A DNA stretch of 64,000 bases from the NCBI RefSeq assembly GCF_000788395.1, contig NZ_CP009889.1, positions 372,001-436,000 on the forward strand, read 5' to 3'. This document shows positions 19,553-24,010 of this stretch, in pieces. Position numbers and translations under genes: made by a program. Below the pieces are notes generated by a model, which was not told the origin of the DNA, made no database searches, and worked only from the letters and a program-made list of their open reading frames with translations. The first letter of the stretch is position 1; every line of letters starts with the position of its first letter. The stretch is from Pseudoalteromonas piratica (GTDB lineage: Bacteria > Pseudomonadota > Gammaproteobacteria > Enterobacterales > Alteromonadaceae).

Positions 19553-20830
19553 TTAATCCAAAGTTGTTGGCATTTTATTATCATAAACCAAAGATGCATA
19601 GTGATTATCTATTTGATTAGTATGTGCTTTAAATGCTATCAACTGTTCGCCTTCTAGTTGGACATTGCTTGGTTGTTTCATATTTAGCGGGTTAACTGCC
19701 CGACCATTTTTATGTACTTCATAATGTAAATGACGTGCTGTAGATAACCCCGTGTTACCTAAATAGCCAATTGTTTGGCCTTGGCTTACGCGGCTGCCTT
19801 GTTTTATGCCTTTTGCAAACCCTTTTAAGTGCGCATACAAGGTGCGATAGCCATTACCGTGATCAATTAACACACGGTTACCAAAGCTTCTACTGTAACT
19901 TGCTTTAAGCACTTTTCCTTTGCCAGCAGCCATAATGGGTGTGCCAATTGGAGCACTGAAATCAATGCCTTTATGTTGACGTGTATATCCCAGCACTGGA
20001 TGTTTTCGCTTGCCAAAATAAGACGATAATCGCGCGCCATTAAGTGGTGTTTTCATCAAGAAATTTTGTGCTAATTTGCCATCTTTAAAGTAAAAAGCGT
20101 TTTGAAACTGATATAGGCTGTATTGCTTAGTTTGGTTTTTAAAATTAATCGCCACAAGTGTTTGCGGTGCTGAAAACTGATTGTATAAATGTGCGTTATG
20201 AGTCACTTCAGACACAGTGAAGTTAAGGGTAATCGCATCGCCTTGTCGAATTTCCCTTTGAAAGTCAATGAAGTGAGACATTGCTAAAACAGCACTGTTG
20301 ATGATGTTATGCGGTATTTTTTCCTGATTAGCCGCGTGATAAAGGCTATGATTGATGGCAAAAGAACGACTCATTTCATGTGTGATTAGTGTTGCTTTGA
20401 CTACTTCAATTTGCCAAGTCTCATTTAGTAACGTTGCTTCAATAAGCTTGGCGTAATCGATTGCAAATCGCAGTACCTTCTTGTTTTCGGTTTCAATGGC
20501 ATCAAATTGTGTACCGGGTCTTATTTTTTTAAAATCGTAATGAGGCTTTACCGCTTTTGCTAAGCTAACAATATTTGCCATGTTAAAGCCTGCAGAAGCT
20601 AAAACATGGGTCAGGGTTTCACCTTGATTTAGGGAATAAGTAAATTGCTTTTCGTCAGAAACTGCAAATTTTGTTTGGGTATTAGTTTTGCGACTTTGCT
20701 GGCTTTTATTCTCCGTAACTTCTTCCTGTAGTTGTTTTTTTGGTAAGTGAACCTTCTTTGTCTCATCTTTACATGCACTTAACACTAACAGCATTAGAAA
20801 AATAAAAATGTACGGCATATTAGTACTCAT
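19553..20830 (-). CDS. M23 (LytM) peptidoglycan endopeptidase lipoprotein
   Basis: 425 residues with a lipoprotein signal (VLSAC, Cys20; an alternative ATG four codons later at 20818 is possible). An OapA/LysM-like N-terminal region (FTYSLNQGETLTHVLASAG) as in ShyA/MepM-type enzymes precedes a LytM domain with Zn ligands His286 and Asp290 (HKGIDFSAP), plus HLHYE at 367-371. Predicted D,D-endopeptidase cutting cross-links, anchored to the outer or inner membrane. It overlaps the upstream M56-M23 gene by 11 bases and so is the last gene of a three-gene operon started by a BlaI repressor. Confidence 0.92.
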   Translation of the reverse strand: MSTNMPYIFIFLMLLVLSACKDETKKVHLPKKQLQEEVTENKSQQSRKTNTQTKFAVSDEKQFTYSLNQGETLTHVLASAGFNMANIVSLAKAVKPHYDFKKIRPGTQFDAIETENKKVLRFAIDYAKLIEATLLNETWQIEVVKATLITHEMSRSFAINHSLYHAANQEKIPHNIINSAVLAMSHFIDFQREIRQGDAITLNFTVSEVTHNAHLYNQFSAPQTLVAINFKNQTKQYSLYQFQNAFYFKDGKLAQNFLMKTPLNGARLSSYFGKRKHPVLGYTRQHKGIDFSAPIGTPIMAAGKGKVLKASYSRSFGNRVLIDHGNGYRTLYAHLKGFAKGIKQGSRVSQGQTIGYLGNTGLSTARHLHYEVHKNGRAVNPLNMKQPSNVQLEGEQLIAFKAHTNQIDNHYASLVYDNKMPTTLD

Positions 20831-22133
20831 TAAGGTAAGTTAATGGGTCAACGGTTTTGCCATTATGTGCAAGCTCAAAATGCAAGTGGGTACCCGTGAC
20901 CTTACCTGTATCACCCATTTTACCAATGACATCACCCTGATTAACCCACTGATCTTTATTGACATTAATTTTATCCAAATGTGCATAAAGCGTTTGCCAG
21001 CCATTCGCATGCTGGATCACAATCACATTACCGTAAGCATGCGACAGGGACGTGGCGTCAGCAATGATGACCTTACCTGATTTGGCTGCAAGAATTGCAC
21101 TGCCTTTGGTATCTACTAAGTCTAAACCTTTATGAGGTCGTAAATTGCGTACCTTTGCAATATGGCCATAATGTGAGCTGATATTGACGTTGCTAACAGG
21201 AAATCGCCACGCTTCTTGTACATTTTGTAACTGAGCAAATGCTGATTTAGTAAAAAATAGAATAATGCAAAAGGTGACCAACACTCCCATTGCTTTGCCG
21301 ACTAAAATAGGCGGTTCTTGAATAATCAAATCAAAGCGTCTTTTATAATTATCTAAGCTGAGTGATTGACCATTAAAAGGTGTTGCAAATGGGTTTGATA
21401 CCGTTTGATGAGAGAGTTTAATGCTCAATAAGAGTGTGCTTGCGTAGTCTTCTTTTAGAAGCTTATTTTGTGCAATTGTTTGTAAATCGCAGCGTTGCTC
21501 CATAGCATTAAGGTAGAGGTTGTTTAATTTTTTTATTGCAGGGTTAAACCAACACACTTCAACAATTACTAACCAAAGCCAGGCTTGCCAGTGATCGCGA
21601 TTATTTATATGGGTTTGTTCATGAGCAAGAATAATATTCTGCTGCGCCTTACTTAAGTGCAAAAAATATTGTGGTAAAACCAGAGTTGGTTTGTTTATTC
21701 CAATCACAAAGGGCGATTGATTGCTTGGCATTACAACACACGCTAACTTGCTTTTGTTGTAGGGCATGCCAGTTGAAATCAGCTGTTTTGCTTGAACATA
21801 CCGTTTGATAACAGCGATTAATCGAAATATGGCAGTTACAGCCAAAAGCGTTAACACGATTGAATCAATGGGGTAGCTATTCTGAGGGCTGGTTTGTTTA
21901 GCCACATGGTCAACATAAGTTAAGTGTTGCTGTGCTTTTTCATTTAACCAAGTGAAGTGTGTGTCTGCAGATTGCACCCACTCAATATTGGGTAAAAATA
22001 TGCCAAGCGACAGCACAAGTGCAGCCCAAAAAATACTTGGGGGCAGGCGATCTTTTAATGCGATTTTATTGAGCGTGAACGCAAGTAAATAGGTAATCAG
22101 TACCCAGCCAAGTAAAGTAATTAACAGCATCAT
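20820..22133 (-). CDS. BlaR1/MecR1-like membrane M56 protease fused to an M23 (LytM) domain
   Basis: 437 residues. N-terminal membrane helices (1-22, 32-50, 92-110) and an M56 gluzincin core with HEQTH at 171-175 and Glu212 (MEQRCD) make the BlaR1-type protease. A further helix lies at 280-300 (VLVTFCIILFFTKSAFA), after which the protein should be outside the membrane. Where BlaR1 carries a penicillin-binding sensor, this protein has a LytM domain: His334/Asp338 (RPHKGLD), His385 (YAH), and His416/His418 (HLHFE), all metal or catalytic residues intact. It sits 2 bases after the BlaI gene. By analogy it senses the wall and cleaves the repressor; this is inference, the domain order is seen. Confidence 0.9.
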   Translation of the reverse strand: MMLLITLLGWVLITYLLAFTLNKIALKDRLPPSIFWAALVLSLGIFLPNIEWVQSADTHFTWLNEKAQQHLTYVDHVAKQTSPQNSYPIDSIVLTLLAVTAIFRLIAVIKRYVQAKQLISTGMPYNKSKLACVVMPSNQSPFVIGINKPTLVLPQYFLHLSKAQQNIILAHEQTHINNRDHWQAWLWLVIVEVCWFNPAIKKLNNLYLNAMEQRCDLQTIAQNKLLKEDYASTLLLSIKLSHQTVSNPFATPFNGQSLSLDNYKRRFDLIIQEPPILVGKAMGVLVTFCIILFFTKSAFAQLQNVQEAWRFPVSNVNISSHYGHIAKVRNLRPHKGLDLVDTKGSAILAAKSGKVIIADATSLSHAYGNVIVIQHANGWQTLYAHLDKINVNKDQWVNQGDVIGKMGDTGKVTGTHLHFELAHNGKTVDPLTYLNEY

Positions 22134-22135
22134 AA

Positions 22136-22501
22136 TTATTTTTTTTGTAAGTTATTTAAGTGGGCTTCAAGTTCATTTAATTCGTCATGTTCAAATAATT
22201 GGCTGCCTGAAAACATTGCCACTGGTAATGCACCATCAATTTCAAGCACTCGCTTAGAGAAATCTTTTACAAAGGCAGCAAGCGTTGGCACTTTATCAAG
22301 TAATGCAGTGTAGATTTTCTTATTGCCTTGCGCCTCCACACTTACATATGCCTTTTGCGCCATACGTTCTAATGTTTTTCTTGTGGAGGAATAGCTCCAT
22401 CCATATAACGATTCCATCCGCTGATGAATTTCTTTGCCAGTAAGAGGCTGTTGTTGCCAAAGGCACTTTAAAATTTCGAGCTCAGGTGCAGTAAGTTGCA
22501 A
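22136..22501 (-). CDS. BlaI/MecI/CopY-family transcriptional repressor
   Basis: 121 residues from TTG 22501, which has AAAGGA six bases upstream; the frame is open to 22519. The winged helix LTAPELEILKCLWQQQPLTGKEI and the STRKTLERMAQKAYVSVEAQGNKKIYTA stretch are diagnostic of BlaI-type repressors, which dimerise through the C-terminal half and are inactivated when their partner protease is triggered. It is the first gene of the operon with M56-M23 and M23 genes. Two GACA..TGTC palindromes lie just upstream. Confidence 0.9.
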   Translation of the reverse strand: MQLTAPELEILKCLWQQQPLTGKEIHQRMESLYGWSYSSTRKTLERMAQKAYVSVEAQGNKKIYTALLDKVPTLAAFVKDFSKRVLEIDGALPVAMFSGSQLFEHDELNELEAHLNNLQKK

Positions 22502-22532
22502 AACAATTTCCTTTAACAATTACAAATTTTTG

Positions 22533-22548
22533 TGTGACAGTTGTCGCA
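22533..22548. promoter_or_regulatory. Candidate BlaI-type operator 1
   Basis: TGTGACAGTTGTCGCA, a near-perfect inverted repeat whose core GACA-N2-TGTC matches the KACANNTGTA style of CopY/BlaI operators. Located 31 bases upstream of the repressor TTG. Confidence 0.65.
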
Positions 22549-22566
22549 ATTTAACAGTTAATAAAC

Positions 22567-22582
22567 TGTGACACAAGTCGCA
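22567..22582. promoter_or_regulatory. Candidate BlaI-type operator 2
   Basis: TGTGACACAAGTCGCA, same outer half-sites as operator 1, spaced 34 bases start to start. Lies towards the divergent SDYE-repeat gene, so one repressor could control both directions. Confidence 0.6.
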
Positions 22583-22771
22583 GTTTTGGATTTATTCGAA
22601 GAAAGGGCTTATGCGTTTGGTTTAAAAAGGTTTTTTAATTGGTTAAAACAACTAATAGTTAGGTTTATTCACAATGCTAGTTATATTGATAATATTAAAA
22701 ACATTAAATATCAACATGTTAAGTTTTGGTATGCTGCTTGCTGTTTAGCGATTCGTTAAAGAATAAACAGA

Positions 22772-24010
22772 ATGGACTTTGCACTTATGCACTCATGTAT
22801 TACACGTCTAACGAAAGCAGCCTTACCTATGGTGGTGGTGCTAATGACAACGGGTTGTATTGGAACGGTTGGTCACCAATATATTAAAACAGACCCTTCA
22901 GGTAAGGTGACCGAACTTAAAAAGTATTATGTACAACAGGGAAACGAATTCCTTGTAACAGCGGATTTAACCGGCCCAGTTGTGCTAAGTGACGATACAC
23001 TGACGATTAAAAAAATGACCGCAGGAAGCAGTATTCGTATTAGCAATACGGAGTCGGAAGAAGTATTAAAAATTACCGAACAAAATGGTAAGGCTACTTA
23101 CAGCTTGTTACAGCATAAGCGCAGCAGCGAGCCATCAACAAAACAAATCAACATTTACATGCAAAGTTTGTTTAATTTCACGCCATTAGCTGCTGAGGAG
23201 CGTATTAGTGCGTTAGTGAAGCACCAAGGTGTTGCTGCAGCGGTGCAACAAGTTGAGCAAGCGCAAAATGATGACACTAAATCGGCTTATATATTGGAGA
23301 TTAGTAAACTAACACTTGATAAAAATGCACAAAAACGTGTGCTTACAGTGCTTTCATCAATTAGCAGTGACTACAGCCAGAAAGTAGCTGCCTTGGCGTT
23401 TGTTGAAACACAAACAACCTTGTCTCAAGATATATGGCTTGCATTGTTTGAGGGATTAGAAAATGTAGCGTCAGACTATGAATTACGTACATTGTTGTCA
23501 TCTATTGCAGCGAAATTACCAGACGATAATGCTGTTCATAGCGCGTTTTTTGATGCAAGCGAGACCATTGACAGTGATTATGAAAAGTATCGTTTAGTGA
23601 GTGAAATCGCCACCCAAGCAACAAGCTTACAGATTAAAGATATGCTAGCCGCAAGCAATGATATTGGCTCCGATTATGAAGCATACCGATTAATGAGTGA
23701 TATAGCGCAAATAGCAAAATCCAATGACGATATAAATGCCATGCTGGTGTTTATACAGTCAATTGACTCAGATTATGAAATGCAACGTGCGTTTAAAGTC
23801 TTGCCTTACAGCTTAATGAGTGAAGCACAAACAGCAAACGCACTGGATATTGCAGGATCAGAAATTGGTTCAGATTATGAACTCGCGAAAGTGTTGGTGT
23901 ACATTTATCAGCAAACTCCTCACAAAGTAAACCTGGCAACTAATGTTAAACAGGCAATGCAAAGCATTAGTAGTGAAAGCGATAAATTAAAGGTATATGA
24001 AGTGCTTTAG
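22772..24010 (+). CDS. Exported protein with seven SDYE-type repeats, divergent from the BlaI/M56 operon
   Basis: 412 residues; hydrophobic export signal (about 15-28) ending in a possible but imperfect lipobox (TTGC, Cys29). Residues 60-115 form a small beta-rich domain (DDTLTIKKMTAGSSIRI). From about 195 onward a repeat with core (I/V)xSDYE recurs at residues 199, 234, 268, 300, 333 and 367, with a degenerate seventh (SSESDK) at 401, a period of 32-35 residues; each looks like a helical hairpin. From memory, similar SDY repeats occur C-terminal to BlaR1-like M56 domains in other proteobacteria, which links it to the divergent operon. Function unknown. Confidence 0.8.
   Translation: MDFALMHSCITRLTKAALPMVVVLMTTGCIGTVGHQYIKTDPSGKVTELKKYYVQQGNEFLVTADLTGPVVLSDDTLTIKKMTAGSSIRISNTESEEVLKITEQNGKATYSLLQHKRSSEPSTKQINIYMQSLFNFTPLAAEERISALVKHQGVAAAVQQVEQAQNDDTKSAYILEISKLTLDKNAQKRVLTVLSSISSDYSQKVAALAFVETQTTLSQDIWLALFEGLENVASDYELRTLLSSIAAKLPDDNAVHSAFFDASETIDSDYEKYRLVSEIATQATSLQIKDMLAASNDIGSDYEAYRLMSDIAQIAKSNDDINAMLVFIQSIDSDYEMQRAFKVLPYSLMSEAQTANALDIAGSEIGSDYELAKVLVYIYQQTPHKVNLATNVKQAMQSISSESDKLKVYEVL

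What the first reader, a model, noticed from the sequence alone, without database searches (positions are those of the whole stretch)
19553..24010. BlaI / M56-LytM fusion / M23 lipoprotein operon: a possible peptidoglycan-sensing regulatory system
The BlaR1-like protease has a catalytically intact LytM domain where BlaR1 carries its penicillin-binding sensor. It is encoded between a BlaI repressor and a second M23 lipoprotein with overlapping or adjacent genes, and faces an SDYE-repeat protein gene across two candidate operators. This suggests a sensor that reads the state of the wall by binding or cleaving it, then relieves BlaI repression. The M56-M23 architecture may be known from annotation, but I know of no described function.
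Basis: partly seen in the sequence, partly recalled or inferred. Interest (0 to 1): 0.85.

Follow-up and report, generated by a model that had tools for sequence, protein, structure and literature searches.

The report
BlaR1-like switch with wall-enzyme sensor
A marine bacterium carries a relative of the staphylococcal penicillin-sensing gene switch in which the penicillin-binding sensor is replaced by what looks like a working cell-wall-cutting enzyme, and the switch appears to control further wall or envelope enzymes, so it may let the cell read the state of its own wall.

Summary
Window 19553-24010 (Pseudoalteromonas-like second chromosome) holds BlaI, an M56-M23 fusion, an M23 endopeptidase-like lipoprotein and, divergently, an SDYE-repeat lipoprotein. 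The fusion model matches S. aureus BlaR1 over residues 3-261 and LytM/M23 peptidases over 306-436. In 64 fusions (this one included) the M56 and M23 catalytic residues are practically invariant. The BlaI P1' Phe that BlaR1 cuts before is kept in 65 of 65. Two operators, TGYGACNNNNGTCRCA, are the only exact sites in this 4.8-Mb genome. The pair stands upstream of 62 of 66 fusion loci, mostly 33-34 bp apart, often with a promoter embedded in it. A BlaI/BlaR1-type derepression switch is very likely. Operon partners include an M23 peptidase (47 of 65 loci), an esterase (20) and a PF00144 serine hydrolase (8).

That the M23 domain is the sensor and peptidoglycan its ligand is inferred. The SDYE link is weaker: 4 of 108 genus genomes have the protein, all four opposite this BlaI; in three other genomes the module is fused to an M56 protein instead of M23. 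The M23/M56 architecture is named in databases and one review; I found no described function. New variant of a known kind.

The parts
22136..22501 (-). BlaI-type winged-helix repressor (121 aa from TTG 22501; the longest ORF runs to 22519)
   Evidence: Pfam Penicillinase_R 4.5e-21; PDB matches to BlaI 1p6r and MecI 1sd6; later start by eye from homologues; P1' Phe (residue 103 of the 127-aa ORF) F in 65 of 65
20820..22133 (-). M56-M23 fusion: four-helix BlaR1-like membrane metalloprotease with a C-terminal, predicted periplasmic LytM/M23 peptidase domain
19553..20830 (-). M23 DD-endopeptidase-like lipoprotein of the ShyA/ShyC/MepM type (lipobox LSAC)
   Evidence: Pfam M23 9.4e-35 and Csd3_N2 just below its cut-off; NCBIfam ShyC/MepM/ShyA models, below cut-offs; ShyA structure aligned over 351 residues; lipobox
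22533..22548 (.). operator B (proximal to blaI), TGCGACAACTGTCACA on the minus strand; would cover the transcription start
   Evidence: exact match, one of two in the genome; conserved upstream of related fusions
22567..22582 (.). operator A, TGCGACTTGTGTCACA on the minus strand; contains the predicted -35 element
   Evidence: exact match, the other of two in the genome; 34 bp from B; conserved
22548..22576 (-). predicted promoter of the blaI operon: -35 TTGTGT (22576-22571), 17 bp, -10 TAAATT (22553-22548), embedded in the operators
   Evidence: same layout in 38 of the 39 loci that fit the operator-A pattern (39 of 66 loci fit; the pattern itself asks for TTG at that place); consensus only, no transcript data
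22772..24010 (+). SDYE-repeat lipoprotein, divergent: N-terminal beta domain and C-terminal alpha-solenoid; probable start at 22787
   Evidence: no Pfam family over cut-off; confident model, pLDDT 91.2; opposite blaI in 4 of 4 genus genomes that carry it; the same module is fused to M56 in 3 other genomes. Membership in the system is inferred

Best explanation
It is a BlaI/BlaR1-type one-step relay whose receptor carries a peptidoglycan-peptidase domain. At rest, BlaI dimers sit on operators A and B. They cover the -35 element and the start site of the blaI - M56-M23 - M23 operon and so repress it. (Operators and promoter layout are supported by conservation; BlaI as their ligand is inferred.) When the periplasmic M23 domain meets its substrate, most likely nascent peptidoglycan or muropeptides released by wall damage or turnover, its movement is passed through TM4 to the cytoplasmic M56 protease. 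The M56 protease then cuts BlaI before a conserved Phe. (Residues, fold and cleavage site are conserved; cleavage and trigger are inferred.) The operon opens and makes more receptor and the lipoprotein DD-endopeptidase, which would work on the sacculus; in other genomes the partner is an esterase or a PF00144 hydrolase, instead or as well. The SDYE lipoprotein is probably an accessory periplasmic module that works with the receptor.
Against: No expression, binding or cleavage data. Conservation of full M23 catalysis fits an effector enzyme as well as a sensor. Only a short linker separates TM4 (ends about residue 303) from the M23 fold (from about 306-310), so the domain sits at the inner membrane and may not reach the sacculus. 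The fusion is taxonomically narrow: 48 of 108 genus genomes, at least 21 of 196 family genomes, 4 of 369 class genomes. Four of 65 loci have no recognised hydrolase partner nearby (L135, L150, L151 and L226, where an M23 gene is 5 kb away). Genomes with the fusion hold some further single exact sites (120 sites in 48 genomes, up to 7 in one) whose neighbouring genes I did not examine. The SDYE protein is rare, and no BlaI was found near it in 3 of the 10 genomes that have it.
Confidence: 0.5

Rival explanations
1. The M23 domain is an effector, not the sensor. The fusion is a membrane-anchored wall peptidase whose own level is set by M56-BlaI feedback; the signal is read elsewhere, for example by the first periplasmic loop or by the SDYE lipoprotein.
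For: M23 catalytic residues kept in 63-64 of 64, more than a pure binding sensor would need; a second M23 gene follows in 47 of 65 loci; a loop with long low-confidence stretches (residues about 47-88) exists, and in BlaR1 the first extracellular loop takes part in signalling.
Against: The M23 domain follows TM4, the place of the sensor domain in BlaR1; other M56 proteins put another module at the same place (SDYE).
Confidence: 0.22
2. It is an antibiotic- or toxin-response system: wall-active antibiotics or competitor lysins are detected through the damage they do, and the exported hydrolases (M23, PF00144 serine hydrolase, esterase) are the defence.
For: PF00144 beta-lactamase-family gene after the fusion in 8 of 19 family loci, and esterases in 20 of 65 loci (Pfam run on one representative of each, the rest by BLAST to it); BlaI/BlaR1 classically answers beta-lactams (PMC9834060).
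Against: No beta-lactamase in the window operon; two of the PF00144 proteins tested score far below the class C beta-lactamase cut-off (111.6 and 100.1 against 415 bits) and 7 of 8 show no Y[SAG]N motif; Pfam finds no penicillin-binding domain in the receptor.
Confidence: 0.15
3. It is a metal (zinc or copper) response: both domains of the receptor are of zinc-enzyme families and the regulated M23 enzyme needs zinc, so the system adjusts endopeptidases to metal supply.
For: PetR/PetP, a BlaI/BlaR1-type pair, answers copper (PMC7896320 passages); the Vibrio endopeptidase ShyB is under zinc control by Zur (PMC6381278 abstract and outline).
Against: Partners in other genomes include serine hydrolases; a Zur-box-like 13-mer (recalled) is no commoner in the window than in shuffles, and none of its matches is at the operon promoter.
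Confidence: 0.07

Closest known systems
BlaI/BlaR1 and MecI/MecR1 of Staphylococcus and Bacillus licheniformis
   Same: Winged-helix repressor with conserved P1' Phe; four-helix M56 gluzincin with HEXXH...E, Asp/Arg pair and a Phe in the autocleavage loop; sensor-type domain after TM4; operators in front of the repressor gene
   Different: The domain after TM4 is an M23 peptidase with intact catalytic residues, not a penicillin-binding domain; the co-encoded gene is an M23 endopeptidase; Gram-negative host; operator sequence differs from the staphylococcal one (recalled, not compared in a call)
PetR/PetP of Synechocystis (copper-dependent BlaI/BlaR1-type pair)
   Same: BlaI-family regulator and BlaR1-family protease used for a signal other than a beta-lactam (PMC7896320 passages)
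   Different: Target genes are photosynthetic electron carriers; I did not compare its sequence
M23/M56 family metallopeptidase (database name) in Pseudoalteromonas and Gemmiger
   Same: Same two-domain architecture
   Different: A name only; I saw no operators, partners or function described. Gemmiger proteins are about 635 aa and about 28% identical, and I did not examine their gene neighbours
ShyA/ShyC/MepM DD-endopeptidases
   Same: Relatives of the co-encoded lipoprotein; ShyA is also the nearest solved relative by sequence of the fusion's M23 domain
   Different: The lipoprotein is below the NCBIfam equivalog cut-offs (168.3 of 700, 161.3 of 341, 159.4 of 700 bits)

Membership tests
BlaI/BlaR1 (MecI/MecR1) regulatory system | BlaI-family winged-helix repressor gene next to the receptor gene | tested here: met
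   Penicillinase_R 4.5e-21; BlaI directly upstream in 63 of 65 loci with a fusion frame
BlaI/BlaR1 (MecI/MecR1) regulatory system | M56 gluzincin active site HEXXH...E and Asp/Arg pair | tested here: met
   H171, E172, H175, E212, D216, R266 in 64 of 64; residues of BlaR1 from PMC9834060 passages
BlaI/BlaR1 (MecI/MecR1) regulatory system | BlaR1 membrane/protease fold with four membrane helices | tested here: met
BlaI/BlaR1 (MecI/MecR1) regulatory system | Conserved Phe at P1' of the BlaI cleavage site | tested here: met
   F in 65 of 65 at the position that aligns, through MecI and by eye, to Phe102 (PMC9834060 passages); cleavage itself not tested
BlaI/BlaR1 (MecI/MecR1) regulatory system | Palindromic operators in the repressor promoter | tested here: met
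   Two sites in 62 of 66 loci; binding itself not tested
BlaI/BlaR1 (MecI/MecR1) regulatory system | C-terminal penicillin-binding (class D-like) sensor domain | tested here: not met
   The domain is M23/LytM (Pfam; fold)
BlaI/BlaR1 (MecI/MecR1) regulatory system | Controls a beta-lactamase or low-affinity PBP | tested here: not met
   In the window the partner is an M23 endopeptidase-like gene; elsewhere PF00144 proteins, the two tested being below the class C cut-off
BlaI/BlaR1 (MecI/MecR1) regulatory system | Induction by beta-lactams through receptor acylation | not testable with these tools
   needs an experiment
M23 (LytM) peptidases, for the receptor's C-terminal domain | H(x)nD and HxH motifs plus second catalytic His | tested here: met
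   64 of 64, 64 of 64 and 63 of 64; motif definition in PMC9662197 (passages)
ShyA/ShyC/MepM equivalogs, for the lipoprotein | NCBIfam equivalog cut-off | tested here: not met
   159.4, 168.3 and 161.3 bits against 700, 700 and 341
Class C beta-lactamase, for the PF00144 partner in other loci | NCBIfam bla_class_C cut-off | tested here: not met
   111.6 and 100.1 bits against 415 (2 of 8 loci tested)

The most novel reading that the evidence does not exclude
The fusion is a receptor that reads the cell wall by cutting it: turnover of a peptidoglycan peptide by the periplasmic M23 domain switches on the cytoplasmic M56 protease, which destroys BlaI and so raises the amount of wall endopeptidase. 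This would be a direct feedback loop from cross-link state to hydrolase supply. The SDYE lipoprotein would be a detachable second sensor module of the same receptor class.
Probability: 0.3. Interest if true: 0.85.

Novelty: new variant of a known kind. Interest (0 to 1): 0.62.

Why it matters
How Gram-negative bacteria match the supply of wall-cutting endopeptidases to the state of the wall is, to my knowledge, largely open. Here a receptor of the BlaR1 class appears to have swapped its antibiotic sensor for a wall peptidase, while its own operon encodes a wall endopeptidase. Signal and regulated enzyme would then belong to one chemistry. The locus is compact and its operator pair is unique in the genome, so each step can be tested with a reporter, a gel shift and point mutants in a non-pathogenic marine host. 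It also suggests that BlaI/BlaR1 signalling is a modular sensor platform, with penicillin-binding, M23 and SDYE modules at the same place after TM4.

Tried and rejected

Rows dropped: 67 loci were examined (48 genus, 19 family). L230 (no fusion frame found by my script) is left out of the 66; L229 also out of the 65; the 64-sequence alignment further drops L228 (under 400 aa). The 65 BlaI sequences lack L188 and L230. L067 and L145, and L052 and L229, are on contigs of the same length and are taken as the same records; only the second of each pair was counted. The summed labels printed double-count; the figures here are recounted from its row list. Loci were drawn from related genomes and are not independent.
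Full report
Setting. The window lies on the 1.6-Mb second contig of a 4.82-Mb genome in two contigs (C2:372001-436000). The genus is Pseudoalteromonas by inference: the nearest named fusion is from Pseudoalteromonas sp. G4 (71%), and genome G216 of the same genus carries a contig of the same length (125,337 bp) as the P. luteoviolacea DSM 6061 record.

The genes. On the minus strand run blaI, the M56-M23 fusion and an M23 lipoprotein, with a gap of 2 nt and an 11-nt overlap; on the plus strand, facing blaI, is the SDYE-repeat gene. BlaI homologues and the AAGGA spacing (by eye) favour the TTG at 22501 as its start. The genome has four other clear BlaI-M56 pairs, whose M56 frames show no M23 motif by eye and do not figure among the fusion's M56-spanning hits. 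Their BlaI proteins are 21-28% identical to this one.

Operators. TGYGACNNNNGTCRCA without mismatch occurs twice in the genome, 34 bp apart, in front of blaI. Of 67 loci examined (48 genus and 19 family, the window included) my script found the fusion reading frame, whole or in part, in 66. Of these, 62 have two sites with at most one mismatch within 900 bp upstream. Spacing is 34 bp in 44, 33 in 12, 47 in 3, 32 in 2 and 31 in 1. The four exceptions are a contig end (L188), a single-site locus (L227) and two loci whose fusion gene is itself broken (L228, L229), so operator loss goes with gene decay there. In the 108 genus genomes, 45 of 48 with the fusion have two or more exact sites somewhere, against 2 of 60 without it; at least one, 47 of 48 against 17 of 60 (tables, recount). 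The one site of G200 and one of the two of G216 are on other contigs than their fusion remnants. In the five genomes with most sites (4 to 7), the only close pair is the one at the fusion. Thirty-nine of the 66 loci fit a Pseudoalteromonas-type pattern (TTG inside operator A, operator B 18 bp on); 38 of these have TTGTGT, and all 38 have TAnnnT 17 bp further on, touching operator B. So the repressor would sit on the -35 element and the start site. The TTG was part of the pattern, so only the rest of the layout is a finding; there are no transcript data. In the group with 47-bp spacing an esterase-like or peptidase-like gene faces the operators (L202, L204, L207, L269).

Partners. Among 65 loci with a fusion frame, an M23 gene follows in 47, a PF00144 hydrolase in 8, and an esterase lies in the operon or facing it in 20 (recount; Pfam run on one representative of each, the others by BLAST to it). 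Four have none of these nearby (L135, L150, L151, L226). The M1-like peptidase in L269 is from a motif seen by eye. The PF00144 proteins have an SVSK (7 of 8) or SLAK (1 of 8) motif, but the two tested fall far below the class C beta-lactamase cut-off. The partners that I looked at begin with export or lipoprotein signals, judged by eye. The class-wide sample shows that the fusion is narrow: 4 of 369 genomes. More distant relatives exist in Stenotrophomonas and Lysobacter.

The SDYE protein. It is confidently predicted (pLDDT 91.2) as a beta domain (37-119) and an alpha-solenoid, with no convincing solved relative. It occurs in 5 of 196 family, 4 of 108 genus and 3 of 369 class genomes; these are ten distinct genomes. 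In four it faces this BlaI (in G287 with an acetyltransferase gene between, in G284 reduced to a 78-aa frame). In three (G029, G073, G660) the module follows the membrane part of an M56 protein behind a BlaI-like gene; the BlaI match is weak in G660 (1.7e-4). In three no BlaI was found near it (G040 and G047 in about 12 kb, G300 in the 4 kb fetched). Five of 64 database relatives also carry Pfam M56 (that search could not reach proteins longer than 1.75 times the query). So M23 and SDYE are alternative modules at the same place of M56 receptors, and the window has one fused and the other as a neighbour. This is a guilt-by-fusion argument; no contact has been shown.

How it most likely works. 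Shown by sequence and conservation: the repressor family, receptor fold, catalytic residues, operator pair and gene order. Inferred: BlaI binds the pair, M56 cuts BlaI, the M23 domain is the input, and the input is peptidoglycan. A membrane-proximal M23 domain with a short linker could more easily reach nascent or released peptides than the sacculus itself; this too is inference. A precedent for peptidoglycan fragments in this signalling class is the dipeptide that binds BlaI/MecI in PMC3305447 (outline, abstract and section 14 read). Rivals are an effector role for M23, an antibiotic response and a metal response, as listed.

Known or new. M23+M56 proteins have a database name. One review counts M56 among the other catalytic domains that together occur in under 1% of M23 proteins, and states that no role of M56 in peptidoglycan cleavage has been shown (PMC9662197, passages). 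In ten searches of the open PMC library I found no function, operator or operon described. I therefore call it a new variant of the BlaI/BlaR1 kind: it very likely works like BlaI/BlaR1, but fails the defining penicillin-binding sensor and beta-lactamase target tests.

Noticed in passing
L001, L002, L004, L005 (same genome, outside the window): Four further BlaI-M56 pairs in the genome, each with different palindromes in front of blaI; two of the M56 proteins end in what looks like a TonB C-terminal domain (by eye), and the one in L001 faces a metallo-beta-lactamase-fold-like gene (by eye).
   Followed up: partly
L165, L192, L210, L228, L229: Decaying copies of the system: SDYE frame reduced to 78 aa and lipoprotein in two frames (L165), esterase in two frames (L192), lipoprotein in two frames (L210), fusion broken with operators lost or halved (L228, L229). 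Sequencing error is not excluded.
   Followed up: partly
genomes G252 and G262: Seven and five exact operator-like sites per genome, of which only the two at the fusion form a close pair; the single ones were not examined for genes.
   Followed up: partly
window 20820-22133, fusion residues 297-300: A signal-peptidase-like Ala-x-Ala stretch directly after TM4, reminiscent of the signal-peptidase site at Gly331 of BlaR1; by eye it is not conserved in relatives.
   Followed up: no
L053 and L098: Stenotrophomonas rhizophila and Lysobacter carry BlaI and M56-M23 with one operator-like site (one mismatch in L098); in L053 the next gene is a TonB-dependent receptor.
   Followed up: partly
P0080 and similar: Many database proteins of about 635 aa, some named as Gemmiger, share the M56-M23 architecture at about 28% identity; whether a BlaI gene is next to them was not examined.
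   Followed up: no
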